A DNA stretch of 23,984 bases from a virus: the IMG/VR virus record IMGVR_UViG_3300048091_000228, positions 1-23,984 of that record, one strand, 5' to 3'. This document shows, piece after piece, positions 4,788 to 18,644 of the stretch. The translations under genes and the position numbers were made by a program. Under the pieces are notes generated by a model. The model made no database searches, was not told the DNA's origin, and saw only the letters and a list, made by a program, of their open reading frames with translations. Position 1 is the stretch's first letter, and each line of letters opens with the position of its first letter.

Positions 4788-5210
4788 TCAGGCGGCCTTT
4801 ACCGAGGCATCCATCACGTCCAAGCTCTGCCGAACGTGATCGATTTCCTGACGGATCAGGTTTTTTTCGAATGAGCTGACGTGGTTGTCATCCAGTGCTT
4901 GGTGCACCGCGATGGTCAGATCGGCGACTTCTTTGCCGACGTTGATCAGTGATTTGGTCAGCGCTTCTGGTTCCGGTGCAGCTTTCGCTACGAGGTCAAA
5001 ACCGAACTCGTTCGCCAGTGTTGCCAGAGGTCGCATGTCGCCTGTGTGCAACAGAACTCCGAACAAATGCTCCACGGTCAGATGGTGTGCGTCGTTGTCC
5101 GGGTTGGCGCGTTGAAGCAATCCGACGTGTGGAACGCCCATCTTTGCAGCCAAGGTCTTGGCTTCGTTATCCAGGACAGCGCTCTGGCAAGCCCGCAGAA
5201 AATCTTCCAT
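4788..5210 (-). CDS. CII-type regulator, phage CP76 family
   Basis: A 140-aa protein of the phage regulatory CII/CP76 type. The start EDFLRACQSAVLDNEAKTLA followed by KMGVPHVGLLQRANPDNDAH and LTVEHLFGVLLHTGDMRPL is a helix-turn-helix region (residues about 2-60). The C-terminal half is helical (IAVHQALDDNHVSSFEKNLI), probably for oligomerisation. It is expected to activate lysogeny promoters early in infection. I prefer ATG 5210, where TTGAGG sits 8 bp upstream; the longer frame from 5264 adds 18 residues without a ribosome site. It is the second gene of the leftward operon, after cro. Confidence 0.85.
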   Translation of the reverse strand: MEDFLRACQSAVLDNEAKTLAAKMGVPHVGLLQRANPDNDAHHLTVEHLFGVLLHTGDMRPLATLANEFGFDLVAKAAPEPEALTKSLINVGKEVADLTIAVHQALDDNHVSSFEKNLIRQEIDHVRQSLDVMDASVKAA

Positions 5211-5291
5211 TCGTAAAACCTCAATTTTGTTTCCGTGGCGCCCTGCCAGTGCGTGGGCGATCATTTGTTCGGGCAGTAAGCAATGACTGCC

Positions 5292-5495
5292 TCAGGCTGC
5301 TGTGCGCTGTGGACGCGCCGGGATCGGACGAATCTCATTCGCCTCAATACGGCCGTCTTCATAAAGGGTGATTTCAATGCTTCTGCCGGCTCGAACCATT
5401 TGCGAGATCGCGCTCTGGTTCACGCCGAGAGCAGCAGCAAGCGCGGCTTGAGTGCCGTGCTCTTCTAGGTATTTGCTCAAAGGGATCTTTTTCAT
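5292..5495 (-). CDS. cro: Cro-type repressor
   Basis: A 67-aa protein. Residues 5-35 form a helix-turn-helix (LSKYLEEHGTQAALAAALGV then NQSAISQMVRAGRSI), followed by a short strand ITLYEDGRIEANEIRPIP, the Cro fold plan. Size fits lambda-type Cro (about 60-80 aa). It is divergent from the cI gene and is the first gene read from pR, so it is the lytic-side repressor that competes for the same operators (5530-5597). The identification is from fold pattern and position and is strong. Confidence 0.9.
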   Translation of the reverse strand: MKKIPLSKYLEEHGTQAALAAALGVNQSAISQMVRAGRSIEITLYEDGRIEANEIRPIPARPQRTAA

Positions 5496-5525: not shown

Positions 5526-5554
5526 ATAGTAGCAGTGCTGCTTTTTATCAGCAA
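5526..5554 (-). promoter_or_regulatory. pR-like promoter for cro
   Basis: Read on the minus strand: -35 TTGCTG (5554-5549), 17-bp spacer, -10 TACTAT (5531-5526). The operator TAGCAG-TG-CTGCTT (5530-5543) lies in the spacer and shares two bases with the -10, so bound repressor would block polymerase. Confidence 0.6.
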
Positions 5555-5597
5555 CAAATTACTAGCAGCGCTGTTTGCTTGGATATCAGCTCTGCTA
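5530..5597. promoter_or_regulatory. OR-like operator cluster (three sites)
   Basis: Three matches to the palindrome TAGCAG-N2-CTGCTA: 5530-5543 (TAGCAGTGCTGCTT), 5563-5576 (TAGCAGCGCTGTTT) and 5584-5597 (TATCAGCTCTGCTA). Centres are 33 and 21 bp apart. They fill the cro-cI intergenic space. The first overlaps the pR -10; the third abuts a possible cI promoter -10 (TAATAC, 5596-5601), which would give autoregulation at high repressor level. The same palindrome recurs at 10301-10336. Confidence 0.75.
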
Positions 5598-5611: not shown

Positions 5612-6400
5612 ATGAAAATACGTCGCCCCCTCACCCCCGAAGAAGTCGCCGAGAGCGCCAGGCTCAAAGCCATCTACGAACAGCGGAAATCAGCTGCCAA
5701 AGCGGCCGGGCGCAGCCTGACGCAGGCGGACGTAGCCGAAGCATGCGGATGGTCCGGGCAAAGCGCATTCAGCCAATACGCCACCGGGAAGGTGCCACTA
5801 AATGTGGAAGCGCTGCTTAAGCTCGCAAAGGCGCTCAACTTCGACGCAAGCGAGGTCAGCTCTCGACTGTTATCCACAGTTGCCAGCGTGCAGCAGGACC
5901 GCATACAGCCGAGCGTAAAATTAGGAAGCATCGAGACTTGGGACGACGAAACCCCGCTCGATGACGACGAGGTCTACGTCCCCTTCCTACACGAAGTCGA
6001 ATTGGCGGCCGGATCTGGCAGGTTTGCGATTGAGGAAAGCGCCAACTCGCGACTGCGCTTCAACAAGAAGGACCTACGCCACAACGGCGTTCAGTTCAGC
6101 AACGCGAAGTGCGTCAAGGTAGGCGGCAACAGCATGATGCCTGTGTTGCGCGACGGCGCGACGGTTGGCGTGAACGTGGGTAAGAACTCCCTCAGCGACA
6201 TCGTCGACGGTGAGATGTACGCCATCAACCACAATGGCCAGCTCCGTGTGAAGCAGGTCTACCGCATCCCGATCGGGATTCGCCTGCGCAGCTTCAATCG
6301 TGATGAACATCCAGACGAGGACTACACGTTCCAGCAGATCCAGGAACAACAAATATCGATTCTGGGGCACGTGTTCTGGTGGGCGATGTATTCGCGTTGA
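5612..6400 (+). CDS. cI: CI-type phage repressor, S24/LexA-like autoprotease
   Basis: A 262-aa protein that should maintain lysogeny. Residues about 36-75 are the helix-turn-helix (SLTQADVAEACGWSGQSAFS, then YATGKVPLNVEALLKLAKAL). Residues about 122-262 are the S24 peptidase domain: cleavage site Ala133-Gly134 in VELAAGSGR, nucleophile Ser174 in GGNSMMPVLRDG, general-base Lys214 in LRVKQVYRI. RecA-stimulated self-cleavage would induce the prophage, as in the family. I chose ATG 5612; the open frame extends to 5510, but that would run through the operators. The gene is the first of a rightward unit that may include the 6484 gene, only 83 bp downstream with no obvious terminator between. Confidence 0.95.
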   Translation: MKIRRPLTPEEVAESARLKAIYEQRKSAAKAAGRSLTQADVAEACGWSGQSAFSQYATGKVPLNVEALLKLAKALNFDASEVSSRLLSTVASVQQDRIQPSVKLGSIETWDDETPLDDDEVYVPFLHEVELAAGSGRFAIEESANSRLRFNKKDLRHNGVQFSNAKCVKVGGNSMMPVLRDGATVGVNVGKNSLSDIVDGEMYAINHNGQLRVKQVYRIPIGIRLRSFNRDEHPDEDYTFQQIQEQQISILGHVFWWAMYSR

Positions 6401-6483: not shown

Positions 6484-9138
6484 ATGGCGAACGTTTTTCA
6501 AGGGCAAGACATTAGAACCGAGAGCGATGTTGAGCAAAAAATAATATACAAACTTCTGACTCTCGACCCTCCGTCAGGTTTAGGTTATTTAGGTTCCGAC
6601 ATTAGAACTAAGTCGGATATTAGAAAGCTGAAAATTGACAAAGGAACCAAAGGAAAGCTTTACTTTCCCGACTACGCCATTATTACCAGCGGCCTTCCAC
6701 TCATAATAATAGAAGCAAAAACACCTGGGGAAGATTTGCGGGAGGCCATGCGAGAAGCAAGGCTTTATGCGACGGAAATAAACTCATCGTATGCTCGCAA
6801 CATCAACCCGTGCGAAATAATCATAGCGACCGACGGGCACAGTCTAGCACTAAGCTACTGGGACAAAGACGAGCCGGAAATCACAATCTCCATTGACGAT
6901 TTTGATCCATTAAGCGCGGAATTTTCTCATTTAATCGATCTCGCATCAAAGAAAAGCGCCTTACGAAAAGCTGATATCATCCTTCGCTCTATCAAAAGCA
7001 CAGCATTGTATTTCAAACCAACCCAGATGCTTGGTGGAAAAGTCATCGCAAACGAAAGTGTAGGCGAAAACTCGTTTGGAGCAAACGTATCAATAGAGTA
7101 CAAATATCTATTCAATCCCGAGACACTTGATGACAGAGCGTCTATCGCTCATAACGCCTACGTTACTTCAATAAGAAAACAATCACATATCGCGCCTATT
7201 GATAAGATAATTCGCGCAGCGTTACCCATCTCAAGTCAAGCCCGACTGATCGAAGACACTAGCACTGCTAAAGAAATAATCGAACAAGTAGCTGATTTCA
7301 GAAAAATCAAGAATGAAATTTGCTTATTGATTGGTGGCGTTGGTTCCGGGAAGTCAACCTTTACCGATTACATTCGGCTTGAGGCATTGCCTCGCCCCCT
7401 AGTTGATTCAACGGTATGGATCAATATAAACCTGAATAAAGCTCCACTCTACCGTGAGCGCATATATGACTGGGTGATAGAGCAGAGCATAGACCTCCTT
7501 AAAACGACCAACAGCAAGATAGATTTCGACAGCATTGACATCCTGAAAAAGATATATTATCGCGAAATAGGAAGAGTTGAGCGAGGACGAGCAGCTCTAT
7601 ACCCAAAAGACTCTGAAAAGTACATTGATGCGATATATAACGAAATAGAACGACTCCAGCGAAATAATCAAGCCACGCTGGACGGCATGATTAATTTCCT
7701 CTGTACTGGCGGAGAAAAATTGCTGGTAGTTGTCTTGGACAATTGCGACAAACGAAATCGAGAAGATCAGTTACTAATGTTCGATGTCGCGTCTTGGCTA
7801 AAAGACACTTTCCCATGCATGGTTTTTCTTCCGCTCAGAGACACAACCTACGATCAGTATAGAGACGAGCCGCCTCTAGATACTGTCATTAAGGATCTTG
7901 TTTTCAGAATTGACCCGCCGCTGCTGGAAAAAGTCATCTATAAAAGACTGGGTTACGCATTAAGAGTCATACAAAGTCAACACTCTAAGTTCACATACTT
8001 TCTCCCTAACAATATGAAGGTGGAGTGCGCCCGAACAGAAGTGGCGACCTACATTCAATCGATGATTTCCTCACTTTTCCAAGATACTTTTTTCAAGCGA
8101 ATCATTACTGGATTAGCTGGTCGGAACATACGAAAAGGACTGGAGATACTTCTTGATTTCTGCAAAAGCGGCCACATAGGAGAAGACGAACTTCTTAAGG
8201 CGCGTCAATCTCTGGGAGAACATCGACTCCCCAACTACCTGATCGCGAGAATCCTTTTAAAGAGCAAGCGAAAATTTTATTCAGATACAGATTCGCACAT
8301 CAAGAATCTTTTCAATTCGAACACTGAAGATTCGTTGCCAAATCCGTTCATGAGACTTTCGATTCTAACTTGGCTTAGAAGCACCTCCAGAGAATATGGA
8401 CCTAATAGAACGAAAGGTTTTCACAAAGTATCGACCTTAATTGGATTCCTTCAGTCAACTGGACACGCTACAGAAAGGGCATATTACGAAATTGCTAACC
8501 TCACGAATGCAGGGTGCATTTTGTCTGAGGCTCAGTCGCATGAGATTACTGATGAAGATCTGATCGCTATTTCTCCCTCTGGACTCATCCACCTAGACCT
8601 TCTACGTAACATTGATTACCTATCAACTATATCGGAAGATGTATTTTTTCGAGAAAATCAACCTGCGAGAAAAATTGCAGACAACTTGATTGGCAAGGGT
8701 CAGTTTAAAGTAGATAGCCGCCAGACAGCCTTGAGCAATAGTTCAACATTGATAAACTATTTGGAGTCGTACCATCAGAAATTTTTTGTCGGCCCAGCAA
8801 AGCTACTGACGGATGAATTCCAGCAAGACTTGCTAGATCTCAGCGGTTTGAAAGACTATGTAACGAAAACGTCCGAAAACGACGAAACGATTCAGCGGCT
8901 CACCAGATTCGAAACGGAATATCCGGAAGGGACACAAGTGGACGCCCAAATCGTGTCAGTTCAGAATTATGGTGTTTTTGTTGAGTTTGGGCTCCAGGGG
9001 CGGGGACTAGTTAGAAAATCTCAACAGCGCCAACAAGATACAACGCTATTTAACTCGTTTGAAACTGGAGAATGGATCAGAGTGACTATTGGAAAATATA
9101 GCGTTCAGCACAGCGGATTCACATTAACGCTCGCCTAA
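6484..9138 (+). CDS. PD-(D/E)xK nuclease / P-loop NTPase / S1-domain protein; candidate prophage defence or exclusion effector
   Basis: A large protein (884 aa from ATG 6484, which has AAGGA 7 bp upstream; an earlier ATG at 6457 gives 893 aa and lacks a good ribosome site). Numbering below is from 6457. N-terminus: HsdR-like restriction nuclease fold with Glu22/Glu26, FPDY (Asp72), then IIIEAK (Glu86, Lys88), a complete PD-(D/E)xK set, and a following EAMREARLYA helix as in type I restriction subunits. Middle: Walker A LLIGGVGSGKST (293-301), Walker B LLVVVLDNCDKR (Asp428, Asp431), and a PLRD sensor-like motif (461), as in STAND/AAA-type NTPases. C-terminus (about 823-893): S1/OB-like GTQVDAQIVSVQNYGVFVEF. 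No membrane segment. It is markedly AT-rich against its neighbours, implying recent acquisition. It sits directly downstream of cI, the lambda rexAB position, so it is probably expressed in lysogens. Domain calls are from motifs; the antiphage role is inference. Confidence 0.85.
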   Translation: MANVFQGQDIRTESDVEQKIIYKLLTLDPPSGLGYLGSDIRTKSDIRKLKIDKGTKGKLYFPDYAIITSGLPLIIIEAKTPGEDLREAMREARLYATEINSSYARNINPCEIIIATDGHSLALSYWDKDEPEITISIDDFDPLSAEFSHLIDLASKKSALRKADIILRSIKSTALYFKPTQMLGGKVIANESVGENSFGANVSIEYKYLFNPETLDDRASIAHNAYVTSIRKQSHIAPIDKIIRAALPISSQARLIEDTSTAKEIIEQVADFRKIKNEICLLIGGVGSGKSTFTDYIRLEALPRPLVDSTVWININLNKAPLYRERIYDWVIEQSIDLLKTTNSKIDFDSIDILKKIYYREIGRVERGRAALYPKDSEKYIDAIYNEIERLQRNNQATLDGMINFLCTGGEKLLVVVLDNCDKRNREDQLLMFDVASWLKDTFPCMVFLPLRDTTYDQYRDEPPLDTVIKDLVFRIDPPLLEKVIYKRLGYALRVIQSQHSKFTYFLPNNMKVECARTEVATYIQSMISSLFQDTFFKRIITGLAGRNIRKGLEILLDFCKSGHIGEDELLKARQSLGEHRLPNYLIARILLKSKRKFYSDTDSHIKNLFNSNTEDSLPNPFMRLSILTWLRSTSREYGPNRTKGFHKVSTLIGFLQSTGHATERAYYEIANLTNAGCILSEAQSHEITDEDLIAISPSGLIHLDLLRNIDYLSTISEDVFFRENQPARKIADNLIGKGQFKVDSRQTALSNSSTLINYLESYHQKFFVGPAKLLTDEFQQDLLDLSGLKDYVTKTSENDETIQRLTRFETEYPEGTQVDAQIVSVQNYGVFVEFGLQGRGLVRKSQQRQQDTTLFNSFETGEWIRVTIGKYSVQHSGFTLTLA

Positions 9139-9144
9139 TGATAA

Positions 9145-9336
9145 AAAAAAGCCACTTTCTAGTGGCTTTTTTTCAAGTCATTATCGACTCATATTTTTTT
9201 CAATTTAGGGTTACATCAAAGCTTGTATTAATCATCCACTGCCCTCTACGCATAATAATCCCTTATACCAGCCAATTCTCGAACCTGCTTCCAGCTTCTA
9301 GGTCAATCCTTGGCACAATGGCGCATTCTTGCAGCG
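9145..9336 (-). ncRNA. Candidate small RNA between a consensus promoter and an intrinsic terminator
   Basis: On the minus strand a near-perfect sigma70 promoter (9371-9343) predicts a start near 9336. The bidirectional hairpin at 9151-9166 with its T run predicts an end near 9145, giving about 190 nt. No convincing protein is encoded; a 17-codon frame (ATG in GATTATTATG, about 9259) with an AAGGGAT ribosome-site match is the best, so a micro-peptide mRNA is an alternative. The RNA would converge with the 3' end of the nuclease/NTPase/S1 gene and share its terminator. Existence of the transcript is inferred. Confidence 0.4.
9150..9173. terminator. Bidirectional intrinsic terminator after the nuclease/NTPase gene
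   Basis: GCCACT-TTCT-AGTGGC (9151-9166) with an A run before and a T run after, starting 12 bp past the TAA of the 6484 gene. It works in both directions, ending that gene and any leftward RNA from the 9343-9371 promoter. Confidence 0.85.
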
Positions 9337-9342
9337 AAAAAA

Positions 9343-9371
9343 TTATTACCCCGCAAAACCTCGATTGTCAA
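9343..9371 (-). promoter_or_regulatory. Near-consensus sigma70 promoter, leftward
   Basis: Minus strand TTGACA (9371-9366), exactly 17 bp, then TAATAA (9348-9343). This is the closest match to the sigma70 consensus that I noticed in the window, yet no recognisable gene lies downstream before the terminator at 9151. Confidence 0.65.
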
Positions 9372-9757
9372 CCCCTTTCGTATCAGTTTGAGAAGCATTA
9401 TATATTTCGCGCGCCCAAGCGTTCTGCAGACATATTGGCATAGCAGTACTCTCCCCTAGCCTCTCTACCGATTGCACATAGAGGGCATACGCCTTGTCTT
9501 CCAGCTTCCAGAGCTTACCCTACCGCTCCTCTGTATCCATCCGGAATTCTGGCCCTTAGAGGCGCCATACGGCCTTCTCCTTCTCGTGCTCCTTCTCCTG
9601 CTCCGTCTATCATCGCTCATCGTAAATCACCCGGTCGGCTGTGGGCTCGCACAAATTGTCAGTTGCAGAAGTGTTCAATGGCGGGACTGACGGCGCTTCG
9701 CATGGTGGCGCAGCGCCACGAATGGTAAGGTGCAGGCTTTATTTGGGGAGGGATACC
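9372..9757. other. Intergenic stretch without a supported gene; degenerate reading frame on the minus strand
   Basis: No intact gene is supported here. On the minus strand one frame reads like coding sequence (charged EQEKEHEKEKAVWRL, then GKLWKLEDKAYALYVQSVER, then LQNAWAREIYNA) but is broken by several in-frame stops within about 45 codons upstream of the last open block (about 9510-9340). It may be a decayed gene. The other minus-strand frame over the AG-rich tract at 9580-9605 is Arg/Ser low complexity and unconvincing. The plus strand shows only short shadows. Confidence 0.4.
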
Positions 9758-10300: not shown

Positions 10301-10336
10301 TAGCAGCGCTATTTACATTAAATAGCAGCACTGCTA
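10301..10336. promoter_or_regulatory. OL-like operator pair
   Basis: Two further copies of the repressor palindrome: TAGCAGCGCTATTT (10301-10314) and TAGCAGCACTGCTA (10323-10336, both half-sites perfect). Centres are 22 bp apart. They match the cro-cI sites about 4.7 kb away and control the rightward operon that ends in the integrase. Confidence 0.75.
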
Positions 10337-10571: not shown

Positions 10572-10675
10572 CCGAACTGAGTGAATGACCTGGTAAGCGG
10601 GTGCGGAGTAACACGGAATTTTTCACTGATGCACCTGGTGACGGGTGCATTGGGAAAACAACCGAGGGCAGTGAA

Positions 10676-10954
10676 ATGCGTCACAGACAGTACTATCTCA
10701 CTCACGACTGCCCACACTGCGGCGCGAAAGACGCCAAAGAAGAATGGGGCGGCGCACGCATGTGGAGCACTTCGTGGGGTCATGGCTTCAGCTGTTGCAG
10801 CGAAGAATGCGGCCTCGCTTTGGCGAAGACGGTGATACCGGATCAGGATACGAAGAAGGGTCGAAAGCGTCTCAAAGCACTTTGGGAGAAGTTGGCCGGA
10901 CAAGCAGAACATGGGTTGTCTGGCGAGCCATACCCGGGCTATCCATGGCGGTAG
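10676..10954 (+). CDS. Small zinc-ribbon phage protein, unknown function
   Basis: A 92-aa protein starting MRHRQYYLTHDCPHCGAKDA; ATG 10676 is preceded by GAGGG. It has a CPHC pair (residues 12-15) and a CCSEEC cluster (about 38-43), which could form one zinc site, then a basic helix (DTKKGRKRLKALWEKLAG) and a Pro/Gly-rich tail. First well-supported gene of the rightward operon. Such small zinc proteins are common in phage early regions and often target host machinery, but I see nothing that fixes a function. An earlier in-frame ATG at 10601 has no ribosome site. Confidence 0.7.
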   Translation: MRHRQYYLTHDCPHCGAKDAKEEWGGARMWSTSWGHGFSCCSEECGLALAKTVIPDQDTKKGRKRLKALWEKLAGQAEHGLSGEPYPGYPWR

Positions 10955-17224: not shown

Positions 17225-17413
17225 TCAGACGAACGCCGGCGCTTCAACCAGCCGATGCTTCGACTCCATGTAGCTGGCCAGGTCGATCACCTCCCGAAGG
17301 AACACGACCACCTCAAGCTTCACCGCGTCGTCCGGCAGCCCTATCCGTTTCAGCATTGCCTTGGCGTCCTCTTCGATCGCCGCCAGCGCATCTACATCGC
17401 TCTGCAACCTCAT
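17225..17413 (-). CDS. Small acidic helical protein, unknown function
   Basis: A 62-aa protein starting MRLQSDVDALAAIEEDAKAM. ATG 17413 has an excellent AGGAGG ribosome site; an upstream in-frame ATG (17455) lacks one. Predicted all-helical (KLEVVVFLREVIDLASYMES). It is reversed relative to the operon and reads towards the single-pass membrane gene, so the three minus-strand genes may form one short transcript. Its base composition is like the phage, not AT-rich. Confidence 0.65.
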   Translation of the reverse strand: MRLQSDVDALAAIEEDAKAMLKRIGLPDDAVKLEVVVFLREVIDLASYMESKHRLVEAPAFV

Positions 17414-17489
17414 GTCGGCCTCCTGCCAGTGTGAGTTCAGAGATACATACCCCACTTCTACGAATCACGCCAGCCGGCGAGGATCCCCT

Positions 17490-18644
17490 ATGCCACCTAC
17501 TCACCAGATACTGGTCGGCGACTGCTTGGATCTGTTGCGGCAGATGCCAGACAGCAGCGTCGATAGCGTTGTTACTGACCCGCCGTACGGCCTAGCCTTC
17601 ATGGGAAAAAAATGGGACTACGACGTGCCGGCGACTGAGGTCTGGGCCGAATGTCTGCGAGTACTCAAGCCGGGCGGCCACCTCCTGGCTTTCGCCGGCA
17701 CTCGCACTCAGCACCGCATGGCTGTCCGAATCGAGGATGCCGGATTCGAGATCCGCGACATGATTGCCTGGGTGTATGGCTCAGGCTTCCCGAAGTCGCA
17801 CAATCTGGGCGGGTCGCACGAAGGCTGGGGCACAGCATTGAAGCCGGCGCTTGAGCCAATCACTGTCGCTCGGAAACCATTTTCCAGCACGGTCGCAGCC
17901 AACGTCATAGCGCACGGAACCGGCGCCCTGAATATCGATCGTTGCCGGGTAACAACCGGAGACGACACGGCCCGGATCAGCAACGGAGCAATCAAGGGCG
18001 GCAACTTCGCCGCAGGCGGATCTGCGCCCGGCCCGATCGCCGGCGGACATTCAGCTGGACGATGGCCAGCCAATCTGATTCACGACGGCAGCGCCGATGT
18101 CGTCGCGCTGTTTCCCGCTTCGGCGGGCGCCTCTGCGCCTGTGACCGGCAATGAACCCACGGCCAACGGATTCAGCGGGGCGGTCAAGTACAGCGGCATG
18201 CGCGAACGGGTGGCCGGAGCTTTCCACGCCGACAGCGGGAGCGCGGCGCGGTTCTTCTACTGCGCCAAGACCAGTCGCAAAGATCGCAACGAGGGTCTTC
18301 TCAGCTCGAATGCTCCCGCTGTCGCCAAGGACGCAACAATGCGCGACTGCGAGACAGCCGAATGGAGTACTCGAAACGGCAACAGCCATCCCACGGTGAA
18401 GCCGACTGACCTGATGGCCTACCTGCTGCGCCTGGTGACACCGGCCGGCGGAGTTGCTCTCGATCCATTCATGGGCAGCGGCAGCACCGGCAAGGCCGCC
18501 ATGCGCGAAGGCTTTCAGTTCATCGGCTGCGAGATCGACGAGCAGTACGCGGCGATCGCCCGATCGCGAATTGAGCACGAAATCAACCGCCAGCAAGAAC
18601 AGCAAGCCGAATCTGACCAGCTCGACCTTTTCGGCACCGCCTGA
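17490..18644 (+). CDS. Solitary DNA adenine methyltransferase, beta-class
   Basis: A 384-aa protein with motif IV TDPPYGL (Asp30-Tyr33), the catalytic motif of N6-adenine methyltransferases, followed by VLKPGGHLLAF (motif VI-like). Near the C-terminus lies LDPFMGSGSTG (motif I, AdoMet binding, from about 324). Motif IV before motif I defines the beta class; the specificity region lies between, about residues 110-290. The last residues include QLDLF (377-381), which fits the bacterial sliding-clamp binding consensus. No partner restriction gene is seen, so it probably protects phage DNA or alters regulation. The start is ATG 17490 after a GAGG site shared with the next methyltransferase. Confidence 0.92.
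   Translation: MPPTHQILVGDCLDLLRQMPDSSVDSVVTDPPYGLAFMGKKWDYDVPATEVWAECLRVLKPGGHLLAFAGTRTQHRMAVRIEDAGFEIRDMIAWVYGSGFPKSHNLGGSHEGWGTALKPALEPITVARKPFSSTVAANVIAHGTGALNIDRCRVTTGDDTARISNGAIKGGNFAAGGSAPGPIAGGHSAGRWPANLIHDGSADVVALFPASAGASAPVTGNEPTANGFSGAVKYSGMRERVAGAFHADSGSAARFFYCAKTSRKDRNEGLLSSNAPAVAKDATMRDCETAEWSTRNGNSHPTVKPTDLMAYLLRLVTPAGGVALDPFMGSGSTGKAAMREGFQFIGCEIDEQYAAIARSRIEHEINRQQEQQAESDQLDLFGTA

What the first reader, a model, noticed from the sequence alone, without database searches (positions are those of the whole stretch)
9145..9371. Consensus promoter plus terminator define an orphan RNA next to the S1-containing effector
Minus strand TTGACA-17-TAATAA with an intrinsic terminator about 190 bp downstream and no clear gene between. 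An RNA-binding (S1) effector beside a dedicated small RNA raises the idea of an RNA-controlled defence pair, or an antisense/antitoxin-like RNA. A micro-peptide of 17 aa is an alternative product.
Basis: partly seen in the sequence, partly recalled or inferred. Interest (0 to 1): 0.6.

Follow-up and report, generated by a model that had tools for sequence, protein, structure and literature searches.

The report
Conserved small RNA in Pseudomonas prophage
Next to a predicted phage-defence gene, a dormant virus of Pseudomonas carries what looks like a real small-RNA gene with its own on and off signals, kept by evolution in its one close relative; that it works together with the defence gene is possible but not shown.

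Summary
The promoter-terminator unit is real and looks selected. On the minus strand, TTGACA plus a TAATAAT -10 (9371-9342) is the best sigma-70-like site in the window. It drives a predicted ~193-nt RNA (9336-9144) ending at a hairpin with 8 U, which is also the effector's own terminator. In the closest relative (L004, effector 93% identical) the promoter hexamers, their 17-nt spacing, the RNA body (74-77% identical, 3 gap columns) and the terminator are kept. The effector's fourfold-degenerate sites are only 31% identical (saturated), the promoter spacer 47%, and a neighbouring gene has decayed in the window. The 17-aa micropeptide is not conserved (stop at codon 6 in L004). Three further Pseudomonas-type prophages (effector 72%) keep the terminator and an intergenic stretch there, under constraint in the pair that could be compared, but not this RNA sequence or promoter. 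Effector homologues at or below 60% identity, some still carrying the S1 domain, lack it. No complementarity to the effector's start region exceeds chance. Best reading: a lysogeny-region prophage sRNA, probably trans-acting; an RNA-effector pair remains a minority hypothesis. No transcript was observed.

The parts
9366..9371 (-). -35 box TTGACA
   Evidence: exact consensus; identical in L004 while the bases around it are 47-52% identical
9342..9348 (-). -10 box, TAATAAT (AATAAT, spacer 18, 11/12; or TAATAA, spacer 17)
   Evidence: L004 has TATTAAT at the same distance
9144..9336 (-). predicted small RNA, about 193 nt including terminator
   Evidence: inferred from promoter and terminator; body 120-125 of 162 aligned bases identical to L004 with 3 gap columns, versus 97/315 at fourfold sites of the adjacent CDS
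9320..9335 (-). conserved 5' block GCTGCAAGAATGCGCC, predicted to pair with the block at 9237-9253
   Evidence: 15 of 16 identical in L004; the two outer helices appear in both sequences folded alone, but a structure-conservation test was not significant
9237..9253 (-). conserved core ATGCGTAGAGGGCAGTG (17 of 17 in L004)
   Evidence: exact core found elsewhere in IMG/VR only in L004's record; contains a Shine-Dalgarno-like AGAGG with GAGG predicted unpaired
9200..9235 (-). 11-codon mini-ORF MINTSFDVTLN, same start and stop in L004 (MTNTNFDAQPN); peptide sequence not conserved
   Evidence: its SD-ATG is not significant by itself (P 0.36)
9143..9173 (.). bidirectional intrinsic terminator shared by the RNA (-) and the effector gene (+)
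   Evidence: kept in L004, L005, L006, L007
6484..9138 (+). neighbouring effector gene: HSDR_N (PD...EAK) nuclease-like domain, P-loop NTPase (GGVGSGKST), C-terminal S1 domain
   Evidence: Pfam HSDR_N 1.9e-8 and S1 1.2e-4; invariant motifs in A4; S1 resembles ribosomal S1; PHROG 14719, function unknown
9403..9600 (-). decayed remains of a gene that is open (170 codons) in L004, just upstream of the RNA promoter
   Evidence: Smith-Waterman 64 versus 26.5 +/- 4.8 shuffled; in-frame stops in the window

Best explanation
A stand-alone small-RNA gene of the prophage's lysogeny region. A near-consensus sigma-70 promoter without the phage's CI-type operators makes a ~193-nt noncoding RNA, ended by a U-rich terminator shared back to back with the convergent effector gene that follows CI. 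It most likely acts in trans on host or phage mRNAs through its conserved, partly single-stranded segments, in the way of other prophage sRNAs, and travels in the same CI-linked accessory slot as the effector. Shown: promoter-like site, terminator, selective constraint, lack of conserved coding. Inferred: transcription, expression in the lysogen, trans action; no target is known.
For: The best promoter-like site of the window lies 193 nt upstream of a strong terminator. Between window and L004 the hexamers and their 17-nt spacing are kept while the spacer sequence is 47% identical. The RNA body is 74-77% identical with blocks of 16-17 nt nearly invariant, against 31% at 315 fourfold sites of the adjacent CDS (Fisher 1.7e-19 or 2.2e-22), and it outlived a flanking gene that decayed. 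Substitutions show no codon periodicity (13/15/9), there is an indel, and the 17-aa ORF breaks in L004. The CI-type operator motif occurs at 5530-5597 and 10301-10336 but not at the RNA promoter, and L004 keeps the promoter although its CI has a different DNA-binding N-terminus. An 8-U tail is typical of Hfq-type sRNAs (general knowledge).
Against: Only one other sequence (L004) carries the full RNA, so this is one pairwise comparison. No transcript data. The RNA body folds no better than shuffles (z -0.43), structure conservation is not significant (14/400 and 52/400 controls as good), and no phage start region stands out as a target. L005-L007 have no clear promoter at the corresponding place.
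Confidence: 0.55

Rival explanations
1. The RNA is a functional partner of the effector: an RNA antitoxin, activator or sensed bait bound by the nuclease-NTPase-S1 protein, so gene and RNA form a two-part defence cassette.
For: All five effector genes at 72% identity or more keep a back-to-back terminator and an intergenic stretch there; where a pair could be compared (L006/L007) the proximal 150 nt are 88% identical versus 68% at fourfold sites (Fisher 1.5e-6). Each RNA core was found in IMG/VR only in effector-bearing records. None of 50,697 phage records has a detectable match to the RNA or the effector.
Against: Effectors at 51-60% identity with an S1 domain have no such RNA. The three RNA types share no significant sequence beyond the 3' terminator part. 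The exact-match searches would miss diverged copies, so exclusivity is weak. No pairing to the effector start region.
Confidence: 0.2
2. The transcript is a tiny mRNA or dual-function RNA: an SD-like AGAGG followed by an 11-codon ORF makes a micropeptide or recruits ribosomes.
For: SD-ATG with the same start and stop in window and L004; SD-ATG mini-ORFs (14, 11 and 7 codons) at a similar distance from the terminator in L005, L006 and L007; GAGG predicted unpaired in window and L004.
Against: Peptide sequences and lengths differ, with nonsynonymous changes dominating between window and L004 and a stop difference between L006 and L007; each SD-ATG alone is within chance (P 0.08-0.37; in L006 another ATG scores better). 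The similarity of position was noticed afterwards.
Confidence: 0.1
3. The stretch is constrained for another reason: a DNA site, or the 3' untranslated region of the upstream minus-strand gene, and the promoter is not used.
For: L004 has an open minus-strand ORF ending about 10 nt before TTGACA; L006/L007 have a DUF1654-like minus-strand gene upstream and no clear promoter.
Against: In the window the upstream gene is decayed, yet hexamers, spacing and RNA body are kept.
Confidence: 0.1
4. Chance promoter next to the effector's own terminator, with no RNA gene.
For: Sites at the 9/12 threshold are as frequent as in shuffles, and the terminator serves the effector.
Against: Conservation in L004 far above saturated synonymous sites.
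Confidence: 0.05

Closest known systems
svsR / co293 prophage sRNAs (E. coli prophages NC-SV and e14), PMC12803456
   Same: RNA of a temperate phage in the cI region that could act on host genes and change phage susceptibility
   Different: svsR is a 77-nt stretch at the 3' end of cI on the cI strand; the present RNA is ~193 nt, intergenic, on the opposite strand, convergent with an effector gene; sequence relation to svsR not tested
Lambda OOP RNA (77 nt; described in the review PMC12197685)
   Same: Short phage RNA made from its own promoter in the immunity region
   Different: OOP is antisense to cII; the present RNA overlaps no gene, its terminator lying just outside the effector CDS
Type III toxin-antitoxin RNAs (ToxI type) and type I antitoxin RNAs (from general knowledge)
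   Same: Small RNA next to a candidate toxic protein
   Different: No tandem repeat RNA, not in the toxin's operon upstream of it, no antisense overlap, and effector homologues exist without it
RsmY/RsmZ-type decoy RNAs of Pseudomonas (from general knowledge)
   Same: Pseudomonas sRNA carrying some GGA motifs
   Different: GGA count at chance (4 found, 3.5 expected); no Rfam match

Membership tests
Intergenic prophage small RNA | own promoter and intrinsic terminator | tested here: met
   both kept in L004
Intergenic prophage small RNA | noncoding, under selection | tested here: met
   body 74-77% versus 31% at fourfold sites; reading frames not kept as peptides
Intergenic prophage small RNA | transcript observed | not testable with these tools
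   no expression data available
Type III toxin-antitoxin system | antitoxin RNA is a tandem repeat array upstream of the toxin in one operon | tested here: not met
   sequence read directly: single-copy RNA, downstream and convergent
Type I antitoxin (antisense to toxin mRNA) | overlap with, or extensive complementarity to, the toxin mRNA | tested here: not met
   only the terminator palindrome matches within the window; pairing to the start region within shuffles
Known Rfam family | match at gathering score | tested here: not met
   none; only sub-threshold hits
RsmY/RsmZ-like decoy | excess of GGA motifs | tested here: not met
Hfq-dependent trans-acting sRNA | Hfq binding and base pairing with target mRNAs | not testable with these tools
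   only the 8-U tail and A/U-rich single-stranded 3' part agree

The most novel reading that the evidence does not exclude
Nuclease-NTPase-S1 proteins of Pseudomonas-type prophages carry a dedicated, fast-diverging RNA partner encoded back to back with them, bound by the S1 domain, that holds the protein inactive or triggers it when the RNA pool changes during infection.
Probability: 0.15. Interest if true: 0.8.

Novelty: new member of a known kind. Interest (0 to 1): 0.42.

Why it matters
If transcribed, it is an undescribed Pseudomonas-type prophage sRNA selected strongly enough to outlive the decay of its neighbour while nearby synonymous sites are saturated, in a slot where prophages keep accessory genes. 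If it works with the effector, it would be a new RNA-controlled defence design; a deletion experiment would separate the two.

Tried and rejected
17-aa micropeptide: truncated in L004. Antisense to the effector: pairing of the RNA with the start region is within shuffles, and blastn of the stretch against the window finds only the terminator palindrome. RsmA-decoy idea: GGA counts at chance. Structure-based family: body z -0.43, conservation controls not significant. Same RNA in other phages or plasmids: none in INPHARED or PLSDB. Pattern hits L020-L025 lie near the number I estimate for chance and were not matched by the covariance model R1. R1 over 398 and 369 bacterial genomes gave only 20-35-bit hits against 232 bits for the window itself; I take these for terminator matches, their alignments were not inspected. 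Further effector homologues in 399 genomes of G002's order and 369 of G001's class: none close. AlphaFold model of the effector: mean pLDDT 52, not used. My first idea that homology stops at the -35 as a recombination boundary was dropped when remains of the L004 neighbour gene were found in the window.

Full report
What is there. The window is an IMG/VR virus record. Its nearest named relatives are Pseudomonas phages, and it ends in an integrase gene and tRNA-Pro, so it is a Pseudomonas-type prophage. Behind an S24-type CI repressor (ending at 6400, +) lies an 884-residue effector gene (6484-9138, +) with an HSDR_N nuclease-like domain (PD...EAK residues invariant in seven relatives), a P-loop and a C-terminal S1 domain. 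About six bases after its stop codon starts a bidirectional terminator. On the minus strand, 193 nt further out, lies TTGACA with a TAATAAT -10. The site is the top-scoring promoter-like sequence of the window.

Is it more than chance? The terminator alone proves nothing, since it serves the effector. The evidence is comparative. L004 (IMGVR_UViG_3300013306_000440) has the same gene order and an effector 93% identical in protein. Fourfold-degenerate sites in the two CDSs are 31% identical (97/315), i.e. saturated. The RNA body is 120-125 of 162 identical with only three gap columns; blastn E 4e-42. The promoter hexamers and their 17-nt distance are kept, while the spacer is 8/17 identical and the sequence upstream about 50%. 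The comparison with fourfold sites uses optimised alignments, which lift unrelated DNA to about 50%; the near-absence of gaps, the Smith-Waterman score of 166 versus 22.5 +/- 3.8 in shuffles and the two blocks of 15/16 and 17/17 put the stretch far above that. A neighbouring minus-strand gene, open in L004 (170 codons), is decayed in the window, so the RNA stretch is not kept by a neighbour.

Coding or not. The 17-aa ORF (9253-9200) has a stop at codon 6 in L004. The only frame with the same start and stop in both that I found is an 11-codon ORF behind the conserved AGAGG (9235-9200), but most of its changes are amino-acid changes, and single SD-ATG pairs are within chance. L005, L006 and L007 also have an SD-ATG mini-ORF at a similar distance from the terminator. 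I keep this as a lead, because it was noticed after the fact.

Relation to the effector. All five close effectors (72% or more) keep a back-to-back terminator. In L006/L007 the 150 nt next to it are 88% identical against 68% at fourfold sites (Fisher 1.5e-6), falling to 76% further out. The sequences of the three RNA types are unrelated beyond the 3' part, and L005-L007 have no convincing promoter at the place. Effector homologues at 51-60% identity (L008, L009, L017, L036) and 44% (L018) have no comparable terminator-bounded element next to the gene (L009 by reading and by model only), though their S1 domains are kept in those inspected. So the RNA is not an obligate partner of the protein family; a partnership within the Pseudomonas-type branch is possible.

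Regulation. The CI-type operator motif (TAGCAGNGCTGNT) clusters at 5530-5597 and 10301-10336, with no match at the RNA promoter; L004 keeps the promoter although its CI has another DNA-binding N-terminus. Expression in the lysogen is therefore plausible but inferred.

Comparison with what is known. Prophage sRNAs near cI are a known kind: svsR and co293 in E. coli prophages, the former reported to reduce phage adsorption (PMC12803456), and lambda OOP (PMC12197685). This one matches no Rfam family and differs from those in place and orientation. Type I and type III toxin-antitoxin membership fails on tested defining features.

Verdict. Observation confirmed. It is a probable prophage small-RNA gene under purifying selection, function unproven. 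The defence-pair reading is open at about 0.15-0.2; the micropeptide reading in its original form is rejected. Everything about transcription and action is inferred from sequence.

Noticed in passing
window 5530-5597 and 10301-10336: Clusters of the palindrome-like motif TAGCAGNGCTGNT between cro and cI and again upstream of the 10601 gene; 20 matches in the window (up to 2 mismatches) versus 5.7 expected: likely CI/Cro operators controlling a second early promoter.
   Followed up: partly
window 5613-5900 versus L004 about 5160-5420: CI N-terminal DNA-binding domains differ while the S24 C-terminal half and the effector are homologous: a domain swap of immunity specificity.
   Followed up: no
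window 6484-9138: Effector belongs to PHROG 14719 (E 5e-128, function unknown); the PHROG match covers residues 8-787 and leaves out the S1 end, so relatives without S1 may exist.
   Followed up: no
L018 2989-5673; L017 3001-5691: Full-length effector homologues on a Desulfocapsa plasmid (44%) and a Paraburkholderia megaplasmid (61%): the family moves beyond phages.
   Followed up: partly
window 9403-9600 (-): Remains of a decayed gene whose homologue is open in L004 8922-9434 (-).
   Followed up: yes
window 10601-10954 (+): Protein with a weak, below-cutoff match to Lar restriction-alleviation proteins.
   Followed up: no
window 17361-18644 (+): DNA methyltransferase of the prophage (PHROG 67).
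   Followed up: no
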